NCBI GenBank assembly: GCA_016342355.1
Contig: JAEINP010000015.1
Location: 1-64,000 of the forward strand
Direction: 5' to 3'
From: Desulfatibacillum sp.
Lineage (GTDB): Bacteria > Desulfobacterota > Desulfobacteria > Desulfobacterales > Desulfatibacillaceae
DNA: 64,000 nucleotides
A program made the position numbers and the translations under genes. Shown here piece after piece: positions 61,393 through 63,618 of the stretch. Below the pieces are notes generated by a model. The model saw only the letters and a list, made by a program, of their open reading frames with translations, did not search any database and had not been told where the DNA came from. Position 1 is the stretch's first letter. The number at the start of each line of letters is the position of its first letter.

Positions 61393-61446
61393 TCAAAATG
61401 GCATGCTTGCGCCTGGAGAATTTTCCTTTACGGAGTTTGTATTAAA

Positions 61447-61488
61447 ACGACTTTCCCGCGAAACTTCAGGACGAATTACGCATTGCGT
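61447..61488. repeat. imperfect direct repeat, copy 1
   Basis: ACGACTTTCCCGCGAAACTT continues to GCATTGCGT. A related sequence lies at 61611-61648. Only about 70 percent of bases agree by eye. It may be a fragment of an older insertion-sequence end. Confidence 0.4.
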
Positions 61489-61610
61489 CCCTGGAATTTC
61501 TTTCAATTTGATATTGTAATGAATTCTTGATAATTTTACGTTATATCAAAAGGCAAGGTTTTTCAATTGCTATTAGCTATTATTTCAAATATTTATGAGT
61601 ATTTTTTCCA

Positions 61611-61648
61611 ACGACTTTTCCGGGAAGTTGAGGAATTATGTATTGTGT
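61611..61648. repeat. imperfect direct repeat, copy 2
   Basis: ACGACTTTTCCGGGAAGTTG continues to TATTGTGT, parallel to the copy at 61447-61488. The intervening bases are AT-rich and hold no gene. It lies about 30 bases before the structured leader of the IS110 transposase. Confidence 0.4.
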
Positions 61649-61676
61649 TTGAATGCATAAGTACTTGTCATTTAAA

Positions 61677-61776
61677 GGAGACCCCCTCGGTGGTATAGGA
61701 TAGGCTGCTAAGGCCTGCCGGGCCGGAAAAAAATTTCCGCCCGGAATCGTACACACCACGCAAAGGAGGTCTCCGG
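61677..61776 (+). ncRNA. structured left-end leader of the IS110 element, candidate bridge RNA / ribosome-site hairpin
   Basis: GGAGACCCCCT (61677-61687) pairs with AGGAGGTCTCC (61764-61774) at 10 of 11 positions. Inside it GTGGT (61690-61694) pairs with ACCAC (61755-61759). A third hairpin (CCGGGC-C-GGAAA, loop AAAA, TTTCC-GCCCGG) occupies 61718-61744. The outer stem covers the AGGAGG ribosome binding site of the transposase. IS110-family elements encode a bridge RNA in a non-coding end; whether this is it or only translational control is undecided. Confidence 0.5.
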
Positions 61777-62805
61777 ATGAAAGCATATTACATCGGGCTG
61801 GACATTCACAGGAAAACAATTGCCTATTGCATGAAAATCCAGAACGGCAAAATCATGGACCAGGGAACCATACAGGCCACGCGCCAGGGTCTTTCCGGGT
61901 GGCTCAAGACCTTGCCGGAACCACGCATCATCGCCATGGAGGCGACCATTTTCACGAGCTGGATCTACGATTTTCTCAAGCCTCACGCCCTGGAAATGCA
62001 GGTGGCTCATCCCCAGATGCTGAAAGCCATCACAGAGTCGAAAAAGAAAAACGACCAAAAGGACGCCCAAACCATCGCCGATCTGTTGCGCTGCAACCTT
62101 TTGCCCCAATGCCATATGATCGAAAGGGAGACCCGCGACCTCAGGCGAGTTCTCAGGTACCGCAATATGCTGGTCCGGGAGTGCGTCCGCATGAACAACA
62201 AAATGGCCGGAATTCTGATGGAGACGGGGACTCCGTATAATAAAACGAAATTGCGCACTAAAAAATATGTGCATGAAGTCCTTGGTTCCGTGGATTACAT
62301 TCCGGAGTCGGCCCGGGAGTTGCTATTGCTGTCCAAGGCAGGCTACGACTGGTTTCAGAAGGCGCAAAAGCGGCTTGTTTCGGCTCTGCGCAGCAACAGC
62401 CGGATCTCCCAAAGAGTGGAAAGGCTCATGACGATCCCGGGAGTCGGAGAGATCACGGCCTTGACCTGGGTGCTTGAAATGGACGATCCCCATCGGTTTT
62501 CGTCCGTCAAAAAAGCGGTCAGCTATTGCGGGTTGTGCAGCGCCCAGATTGAATCCGCCGGGAAGCAGCGCCGGAACCCGATTTCCAAAAAGAGGAACAA
62601 ACATCTCCAGACCATTCTCATCGAGGCGGCGAAAATCGCCCCCTTATGGAACCCTGAATTGGCGGAGGTGTATGCGAGGGAAGCTGCAAAGGGAAACCGG
62701 AACCAGGCGACCATCGCCGTGGCCAGAAAAATCGTGGCTTTTATGTTAGCCGTGGACAAACGCGAGGGAAACTTTGAAATTCCCGGTGAAAAACAGGCCG
62801 CTTAA
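61777..62805 (+). mobile_element. IS110-family transposase (insertion sequence)
   Basis: 342 residues with AAAGGAGG before the ATG. The N-terminal DEDD (RuvC-like) domain has YIGLDIHRKTIAYC, IIAMEATIFTSWIYDFL and KKNDQKDAQTIADLL. The C-terminal Tnp_20 domain has MTIPGVGEITALTWVLEMDD and CGLCSAQIESAGKQRRNPIS with the conserved serine. The frame is intact, so the element may be active. IS110 transposases act as RNA-guided recombinases and leave no classical terminal inverted repeats, so element ends cannot be fixed here. It lies after the sigma54 activator gene. Confidence 0.93.
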
Positions 62806-63243
62806 AAAAGAATTCCTGTAAAAGGAATGGGATAATACAACATATTGGCGAGAACAGGCTTTCCCGCCGGGCCTCCCAGTCTGGGGACTGCGCAAGAAAA
62901 GACAGGATCTTTTTGAGGCGCCATTACTTGTGTTTGGAGGCTGGCGGGTTTGGACCCAAACTCAATCTTCTGTAAGGGGCGCGCCGATTTTTCCGGCAAG
63001 ACCCGAGACAGCAAATGGATGTCTGGTCATGGGAGACCATGGACCCTGGGCAAGGATTAAAAAAAGCCGCCGTCCAATATGCACAGGTGAACAGGCAGCC
63101 GCCAGGGGGCGTTCCTCCAGGAAGGACGGGAAATCTCCATTTTTCCCTTGACATTACTTATCATGGATGTCCCCCGAATACCCCGAATATAGTCCCGAAT
63201 ACAATATGCAATTACCCATGCCTGTTAGTTGTTAAGGTGACTT
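62806..63243. other. non-coding region downstream of the IS110 transposase
   Basis: No gene supported. It begins with a small hairpin ATTCC-TGTAAA-AGGAAT (near 62815) and CAGTC-TGGG-GACTG near 62879, so part is probably the right end of the element. The right boundary, near or before about 63030, is not visible. The last 70 bases should contain the promoter of the membrane protein gene. Confidence 0.45.
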
Positions 63244-63618
63244 ATGATGACAAAAAGACCGCTACCAATTACCATCATCGTGTTTGTATTTTTTGCAGAA
63301 GGTCTATTGCGTTTTGGGGGGGCGATAGCGTTACTCCTGATCAGCTTCGGAGACATTGTTTTAGCACAATTTCAGATGTTTAGCTTTGTTATGGTCAGCT
63401 TTGCCAATCTTGTAGCTTGTTTTGGATTGTGGAAATTGCGACAATGGGGAGTTCTCCTGTTTATAGGGGTATGGCTATTCAATTTTTTTTATGCCTTGAT
63501 TTTGGAAGGTGGACCTATTGGCCTTACCAAATCACCTTGGGATTGTTTTATGTTCCTTATCTCTCCGGTGTTATTTGCAATAGTGATCTTGCCTTACTGG
63601 AAACGATTTAATAACTGA
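63244..63618 (+). CDS. small integral membrane protein, unknown function
   Basis: 124 residues. AAGGTG precedes the double ATG at 63244. About four hydrophobic segments cover most of the length (PITIIVFVFFAEGLLRF, AIALLLISFGDIVLA, FVMVSFANLVACFGLW, GVLLFIGVWLFNFFYALI, FMFLISPVLFAIVILPYW). The C-terminus is basic. No family is recognised. It is isolated between IS110-related DNA and an apparently empty stretch and may be cargo of mobile DNA. Confidence 0.65.
   Translation: MMTKRPLPITIIVFVFFAEGLLRFGGAIALLLISFGDIVLAQFQMFSFVMVSFANLVACFGLWKLRQWGVLLFIGVWLFNFFYALILEGGPIGLTKSPWDCFMFLISPVLFAIVILPYWKRFNN

What the first reader, a model, noticed from the sequence alone, without database searches (positions are those of the whole stretch)
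61677..61776. Candidate bridge RNA and masked ribosome binding site of an IS110 element
The 100 bases before the transposase form nested stems. The outermost stem traps AGGAGG, which would keep transposase translation low. IS110 elements use a bridge RNA encoded in a non-coding end to choose donor and target; the internal unpaired stretches here (for example around 61695-61717) could be such guide loops.
Basis: partly seen in the sequence, partly recalled or inferred. Interest (0 to 1): 0.6.

Follow-up and report, generated by a model that had tools for sequence, protein, structure and literature searches.

The report
Structured leader masking transposase start site
The 100 bases before this mobile element's gene form a real, evolutionarily conserved RNA fold that hides the ribosome binding site, but the RNA that guides the element to its target lies at the other end of the element, as is usual for its group.

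Summary
Positions 61677-61774 fold into a three-way-junction leader (z = -5.2). The fold is conserved and covaries in 42 matches from 41 loci (91.8% of cells paired; 181 double-change cells against 51 in shuffles). Its outer helix pairs the Shine-Dalgarno sequence, so the masked-RBS idea is well supported comparatively; no experiment was possible.

The leader is not the bridge RNA. Flank comparison and 15 unoccupied copies of a REP-like palindrome place the element at 61646-63167, with IS1111-type ends and its long non-coding region downstream of tnp. That region encodes a second covarying RNA (about 62863-63045). Its loops match the left flank (29 loci: 133 of 203 positions; shuffles 62.8 ± 6.6, maximum 91) and the right flank (32 loci: 7.19 of 9; permutations 5.94 ± 0.17). 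In the same tests the leader matched left flanks at chance and right flanks only marginally.

The window's own left guide fits its flank poorly (3 of 5). RBS-masking 5'UTRs are known in this superfamily (ISPpu9). So this is an IS1111-type element carrying an apparently undescribed leader RNA family of a known kind. What opens the leader is unknown.

The parts
61646..63167 (+). Whole IS1111-type insertion sequence (1522 bp): 7-bp left extension TGTTTGA, 3-bp right extension GGA; followed by TG of the target
   Evidence: Shared sequence with other copies starts/stops here; 15 unoccupied targets read ...GATCG-TG-TCCCCC or a close variant; 7/3-bp geometry as stated for IS1111 in PMC11187229
61653..61663 (+). 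Left subterminal inverted repeat ATG(C)ATAAGTA
   Evidence: 10 of 10 to reverse complement of 63155-63164 with one 1-nt gap (sequence)
61649..61654 (+). -10-like TTGAAT of the circle-junction promoter (formed when right end abuts left end)
   Evidence: Junction TTGACA-17 nt-TTGAAT in the window; similar layout visible in the 24 loci listed. Consensus match only, not shown active
61677..61774 (+). Leader RNA: three-way-junction fold P1-P4 that pairs the Shine-Dalgarno sequence
61677..61686 (+). P1 5' arm, pairs with 61765-61774 (contains the SD)
   Evidence: P1: 94.1% of cells paired, 5 of 10 pairs with changes on both sides
61702..61716 (+).
   Evidence: 5 of 5 pairs with double changes, 91.2% paired
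61718..61744 (+). P4 hairpin with a single 5' bulged base
   Evidence: 8 of 9 pairs with double changes, 91.5% paired
61764..61769 (+). Shine-Dalgarno AGGAGG, masked in P1
61777..62805 (+). Transposase/recombinase, 342 aa; DEDD = D9, E55, D93, D96; serine S260
   Evidence: PF01548 E 1.6e-22, PF02371 E 2.2e-22; NF033542; alignment to IS621 and ISCro4 and residues named in PMC11208158; invariant in A1
62863..63045 (+). Bridge RNA / seekRNA (3' non-coding region); outer limits inferred from covarying helices
   Evidence: 29-sequence alignment: 95.8% of cells paired, 22 of 34 pairs with double changes, 0 of 500 shuffles
62880..62887 (+). Right target guide TCTGGGGA (pairs right flank TCCCCCGAA)
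   Evidence: 7 of 9 in the window; 32 loci own 7.19 of 9 vs permuted 5.94
62926..62932 (+). Left target guide ACTTG plus core TG
   Evidence: 29 loci, 133 of 203 positions vs 62.8 shuffled; window itself 3 of 5; differs from another copy in the same genome only here within the first 131 nt
63012..63023 (+). Left donor guide candidate CAAATGGATGTC (matches right end CATGGATG)
   Evidence: ATAGATG/CATAGATG covary in 5 Desulfocapsa-type loci; L032 and L068 do not follow
63148..63153 (+). -35-like TTGACA of the circle-junction promoter
63155..63164 (+). Right subterminal inverted repeat TACTTATCAT

Best explanation
The window holds an IS1111-type (IS110-superfamily) insertion sequence, 61646-63167. 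Its target and donor are chosen by a guide RNA made from the non-coding region downstream of tnp. The 100-base leader before tnp is a separate RNA: the 5'UTR of the transposase mRNA, conserved as a three-way-junction fold whose basal helix buries the Shine-Dalgarno sequence and so keeps transposase translation low. Shown here by sequence comparison: element ends, guide-to-flank matching, covariation of both RNAs, SD inside the basal helix. Inferred: that the fold forms in the cell, that it lowers translation, and that transcription starts at the promoter formed when the circle joins right and left ends, so that every tnp transcript carries the leader. A simple reason for the layout would be that one transcript can supply guide RNA while yielding few transposase molecules.
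For: Leader fold z -5.18; 59 clade leaders, median z -4.3, 56 of 59 below -2; P1 arms fit their own partner better than others' (9.12 vs 8.31 ± 0.09, 5000 permutations, max 8.72); leader model hits 42 places in 41 of 93 sources at E <= 1.6e-5, 28 of them not in the 14-sequence seed; covariation 181 double-change cells vs 51.1, 0 of 500. SD masking beyond shuffles in 33 of 48 clade members, 4 of 20 other IS110s, 2 of 23 other ORFs of the window. Guide RNA downstream. Ends and empty sites. Junction promoter layout. Precedent: ISPpu9 5'UTR mutations that weaken the RBS-burying fold raised a tnp fusion 26-fold (PMC8450116, sections read).
Against: No expression data. In the window alone, SD masking is within shuffles (0.10). 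In the Acidobacteria-type leaders the SD is only partly paired: 44 of 59 leaders have at least 4 of 5 SD bases paired, and the model does not reach most of that branch. The window's left guide fits its own flank at only 3 of 5 bases, no better than the guide of the other copy would. The donor guide for the left end was not identified: the candidate CCAAAC does not covary with LE TGTTTG/TGTTAG. Leader and 3' RNA show a weak excess of mutual pairing (3% of permutations as low), which I cannot interpret.
Confidence: 0.82

Rival explanations
1. The leader is itself the bridge RNA; its junction loops are guides.
For: IS110-type elements carry the bridge RNA upstream of the recombinase gene (PMC11208160, passages), and the leader is a strongly folded RNA inside the element.
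Against: Leader bases match left flanks at chance and right flanks marginally; the supposed loop 61695-61717 is mostly a covarying hairpin; a different RNA at the other end matches both flanks; layout, 7/3-bp ends and guide order are IS1111-type.
Confidence: 0.03
2. The leader is a protein-sensing switch: the transposase, an RNA-binding protein, binds its own leader and stabilises the closed form; free guide RNA competes it off.
For: The fold is more elaborate than masking needs: P3 and P4, the latter with a constant one-base bulge, are conserved and covary, and some unpaired junction bases are rather constant.
Against: No hit of the leader model in any 3' non-coding region, so no shared binding shape was found; longest shared words between leader and 3' RNA are at permutation level. 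No binding data.
Confidence: 0.12
3. An antisense RNA opens the leader, as Asr9 is proposed to do in ISPpu9.
For: Precedent in PMC8450116.
Against: The only sigma-70-like site found on the minus strand (61671-61642) lies at the left end and reads out of the element, not near the tnp start where the Asr9 promoter sits; 1 site found, 1.5 expected by chance. Other promoter types are not covered.
Confidence: 0.12
4. The fold is a DNA feature of the left end needed for transposition, not an RNA regulator.
For: It lies within about 30-130 bp of the left end in the clade leaders printed.
Against: The model scores the plus strand far higher than the minus strand (for L026 82.9 vs 29.3 bits) and G-U pairs occur; for ISEc11, a mini-element with 50 bp of left end moves (PMC11187229, passage).
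Confidence: 0.04

Closest known systems
IS1111 group of the IS110 superfamily (ISEc11, ISPa11, ISKpn4; seekRNA / right-end bridge RNA)
   Same: Long non-coding region downstream of tnp, subterminal inverted repeats, 7-bp left and 3-bp right extensions, guide complementary to the top strand placed 5' of the one complementary to the bottom strand, circle-junction promoter layout, target in a repeat
   Different: Conserved motif reads GLCSAQIESAG instead of GL-P----S(T)G; short 10-bp gapped sTIR; carries a conserved SD-masking leader RNA that I did not find described for the group
ISPpu9 of Pseudomonas putida (tnp 5'UTR with buried RBS, Asr9, Ssr9)
   Same: IS110-superfamily element in REP-type repeats; tnp 5'UTR fold that buries the RBS; second RNA encoded downstream of tnp on the same strand
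   Different: ISPpu9 has a 244-nt 5'UTR and an antisense RNA, with a downstream RNA complementary to that antisense; here the leader is about 98 nt, no antisense promoter was seen, and leader and 3' RNA share no sequence beyond permutation level
IS621 / IS110-type bridge RNA
   Same: DEDD plus serine recombinase, bispecific guide RNA with target and donor loops
   Different: IS621 bridge RNA is upstream of the gene; here it is downstream and the guide order differs

Membership tests
IS110 superfamily (DEDD recombinase) | PF01548 RuvC-like DEDD domain and PF02371 domain with catalytic serine | tested here: met
   PF01548 1.6e-22, PF02371 2.2e-22; D9, E55, D93, D96, S260 align with IS621 D11, E60, D102, D105, S241
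IS1111 group | Long non-coding region downstream of tnp, shorter upstream | tested here: met
   131 bp before tnp, 362 bp after it, within 61646-63167
IS1111 group | Subterminal inverted repeats with 7-bp left and 3-bp right extension | tested here: met
   TGTTTGA + ATG(C)ATAAGTA ... TACTTATCAT + GGA; sTIR 10 bp with a 1-nt gap, short against the usual 11-13 bp given in PMC11187229
IS1111 group | Guide RNA in the right-end region matching target on both strands, top-strand complement 5' of bottom-strand complement | tested here: met
   RTG 62880-62887 precedes LTG 62926-62930
IS1111 group | GL-P----S(T)G motif of IS1111 transposases | tested here: inconclusive
   GLCSAQIESAG: serine kept, P and G replaced by S and A
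IS1111 group | Circular intermediate with active junction promoter | not testable with these tools
   Consensus elements TTGACA-17-TTGAAT present when ends are joined on paper; activity unknown
IS110-type bridge RNA in the leader | Loops complementary to target and donor in the upstream region | tested here: not met
   Leader as guide at chance for left flanks, marginal (4.6% of permutations) for right flanks; donor matches of the leader not tested
RBS-masking transposase leader (ISPpu9-like control) | Conserved 5'UTR helix that pairs the SD | tested here: met
   P1 in A8: 94.1% of cells paired, 5 of 10 pairs with double changes; 33 of 48 clade members beyond shuffles
RBS-masking transposase leader (ISPpu9-like control) | Disrupting the helix raises translation | not testable with these tools
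   Needs reporter fusions
Known Rfam families | Match to any of 4227 Rfam models | tested here: not met
   No match at E <= 1 over 61400-63240, none at gathering score over 61640-63180

The most novel reading that the evidence does not exclude
The leader is an undescribed riboregulator family of IS1111-type elements in which the transposase binds its own leader and shuts translation until enough guide RNA, made from the same transcript, draws it away: a feedback loop that matches recombinase to guide-RNA supply.
Probability: 0.1. Interest if true: 0.7.

Novelty: new member of a known kind. Interest (0 to 1): 0.35.

Why it matters
It corrects where the programmable RNA of this element sits and gives a set of natural elements, with guide and target read side by side, in which retargeting can be followed (two copies in one genome differ over the first 131 nt of the 3' RNA only in the left guide). 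It also adds a conserved leader RNA, absent from Rfam, that may set how much recombinase these elements make. That bears on how such elements stay quiet and on expressing their recombinases outside their hosts.

Tried and rejected
Leader as bridge RNA: tested with permutations as left guide, its reverse complement and right guide; rejected. Leader as mimic of the 3' RNA: no model hit in 3' regions, shared words at permutation level. Leader pairing with the 3' RNA: mean duplex energy own -62.8 vs -61.1 ± 0.85, 3% of permutations as low, 22 loci, by a method that ignores internal folding; left as inconclusive. Antisense promoter as in ISPpu9: not seen. Donor guide for the left end: the only candidate does not covary; unresolved. 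SD masking as a trait of all IS110s: 4 of 20 outside the clade, so not general; the leader model hit 0 of 35 non-clade loci. Rfam: nothing. Viral-contig scans with the protein and with A1: no relatives. First genome-contig scan with the single protein: none; the scan with A1 gave 80 loci. ISEc11 as a yardstick: record not held; ISEc21 was fetched (L106) but gave no tblastn hit and served only as a source. Rows dropped before counts: L018-L021 as duplicates of L026, L029, L027 and L040; loci lacking a recognisable left end, 3' motif or right end (listed; 9 loci without left end; near-identical leaders and rows without an SD match). Alignment A8 comes from a model fitted to this structure, so its pair counts lean towards it; the shuffle and slide controls and the separate arm test were used to weigh that. 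The 23 other ORFs were picked mechanically (open frames of at least 180 codons with an SD match of 5 of 6) and were not checked to be genes.

Full report
What is there. The ORF at 61777-62805 is an IS110-superfamily recombinase: PF01548 and PF02371 well above their cut-offs, NF033542. Profile alignment to IS621 and ISCro4 and the residues named in PMC11208158 (passages) put the DEDD residues at D9, E55, D93, D96 and the serine at S260, all invariant in six relatives. The 100 bases before it fold with z -5.18.

Element ends. The own genome holds one full copy and pieces of others that stop at contig ends. Left-end pieces (L005, L007, L008) share sequence with the window from TG-TTTGAATG on; right-end pieces (L002, L003, L004) share it up to GGA, followed by TG (CG in L002 and L004) and TCCCCC. 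The neighbours of the other copies belong to a REP-like palindrome. A search with one flank gave 20 places. Fifteen of them are unoccupied and read GATCGTG then TCCCCC or a close variant. The element is therefore 61646-63167. With 7 bp outside the left and 3 bp outside the right subterminal inverted repeat, this is the geometry given for IS1111 elements in PMC11187229 (passage). The leader lies inside the element.

Where the guide RNA is. Relatives about 59-63% identical over the protein were found in the phylum search (7 of 395 genomes, own included, at E <= 1e-40), and 80 loci of 45-70% identity in the second genome-contig scan. In 29 loci where both could be read, the bases before the invariant TGTTT of a 3' RNA match the bases before the left end at 133 of 203 positions (7 per locus); 5000 shuffles gave 62.8 ± 6.6 with maximum 91. 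In 32 loci, the reverse complement of the right flank finds 7.19 of 9 matching bases upstream in the same RNA, against 5.94 ± 0.17 (max 6.59) when loci are permuted. Single cases are striking: L055, L057, L060, L064 and L079 have their own right flanks, and the RNA follows them. A donor-loop stretch CAAATGGATG resembles the right end CATGGATG; in five Desulfocapsa-type loci both carry A at the same place. L032 and L068 break that pattern. The RNA has its own covarying helices: 95.8% of cells paired, 22 of 34 pairs with double changes, 0 of 500 shuffles as high. Order and position of the guides agree with IS1111 seekRNAs (PMC11187229, sections 6 and 9) and with right-end bridge RNAs of IS1111 (PMC11208160, passages).

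Weak points for the window copy itself. Its left guide ACTTG agrees with its flank TATTG at 3 of 5 bases; the guide GATCG of the C117 copy would do equally well. Its right guide agrees at 7 of 9. Over the first 131 aligned nt of the 3' RNA the two copies differ at three bases, all in the left guide, so the guide has changed, but not clearly to fit the present flank. The left-end donor guide remains unidentified.

The leader. In 59 clade leaders the median folding z is -4.3, and 56 are below -2. P1 arms fit their own partner better than permuted ones (9.12 vs 8.31 ± 0.09, max 8.72 of 5000; 58 leaders). A model from 14 leaders without the window finds 42 places in 41 of 93 sources at E <= 1.6e-5, the window at 61677-61774 among them, and none in a 3' region. 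One of the 42, in L102, lies on the opposite strand to that locus's match and probably belongs to a second element. On the 42-sequence alignment, 91.8% of cells pair (78.1 in shuffles), 181 cells have changes on both sides (51.1), and sliding the partner by 1-3 columns destroys the signal. Records with hits include a Scalindua MAG (L035) and an Actinomycetes MAG (L078, L090) besides many Deltaproteobacteria-type MAGs (titles). The model hits none of 35 IS110 loci outside the clade.

Does it mask the SD? P1 contains GGAGG in full. Against shuffles that keep the SD, masking is unusual in 33 of 48 clade members, 4 of 20 other IS110s and 2 of 23 other ORFs of the window; for the window copy alone the fraction is 0.10. 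In the Acidobacteria-type branch the SD is only partly paired. So masking is a trait of the clade rather than something the window sequence proves alone.

Is the leader a guide? Searched in the same way, it matches left flanks at 5.74 of 9 (permuted 5.74), their reverse complement at 5.48 (5.53) and right flanks at 6.08 (5.86 ± 0.12; 4.6% of permutations as high). The bridge-RNA reading of the leader is therefore dropped.

How it probably works. Joining right and left ends gives TTGACA-17 nt-TTGAAT in the window, and a similar layout recurs in the 24 loci listed. A transcript from there would, by the usual spacing, start about 15 nt before P1, so it would carry the whole leader, then tnp, then the guide RNA (inference). 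The likely role of the leader is to hold translation down. ISPpu9 is the tested precedent: mutations that weaken its RBS-burying fold raised a fusion 26-fold (PMC8450116, abstract and sections 16, 18 and 24 read). What opens the leader here is not known; an Asr9-like antisense promoter was not seen.

Novelty. Literature searches in the open-licence PMC library brought up ISPpu9 as the only described RBS-masking 5'UTR in this superfamily that I saw; subscription papers and preprints were not searched. Rfam has no match. I rate the element a new member of a known kind, carrying an apparently undescribed leader RNA family of a known kind of control.

Noticed in passing
L109, L112-L117, L119-L126 (own genome): A REP-like palindrome (GGGGGACACGACTCTTATCTC...GAGATAAAGATCGTGTCCCCC) has at least 15 unoccupied copies; the element sits in either arm of it (L007, L008 right arm; L005 the other arm).
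   Followed up: partly
62926-62929 versus L002: Two copies in one genome differ over the first 131 nt of the 3' RNA only at three bases of the left guide: a natural change of guide.
   Followed up: partly
L006 1501-1661 (C78:45150-45310) and L009 (C16:22231-22321): Decayed right-end fragments of the element; the own-genome protein search found no transposase gene beside them.
   Followed up: partly
61433-61462 and 61597-61626: A 77% identical 30-base direct repeat just left of the element; the first copy runs into GCATTGCGTCCCTGGAATTT, which resembles an empty version of the window's target.
   Followed up: no
L102 758-847 (+) and 1442-1524 (-): Two leaders in opposite orientation in one contig, suggesting two inverted element copies.
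   Followed up: no
L027 and L037, 3' non-coding region: The linker between target and donor loops is very variable and in some elements holds a long extra hairpin.
   Followed up: no
clade transposases, window S260-A261: The IS1111 motif GL-P----S(T)G reads GLCSAQ-ESAG in all six aligned members (one varying residue): serine kept, P and G replaced.
   Followed up: partly
63244-63618: Small ORF of 124 aa, apparently hydrophobic, right of the element; no Pfam match.
   Followed up: no
G000:C88:64010-64390: Fragment of a second, distant IS110-type transposase (34% identity over 128 aa) near a contig end.
   Followed up: no
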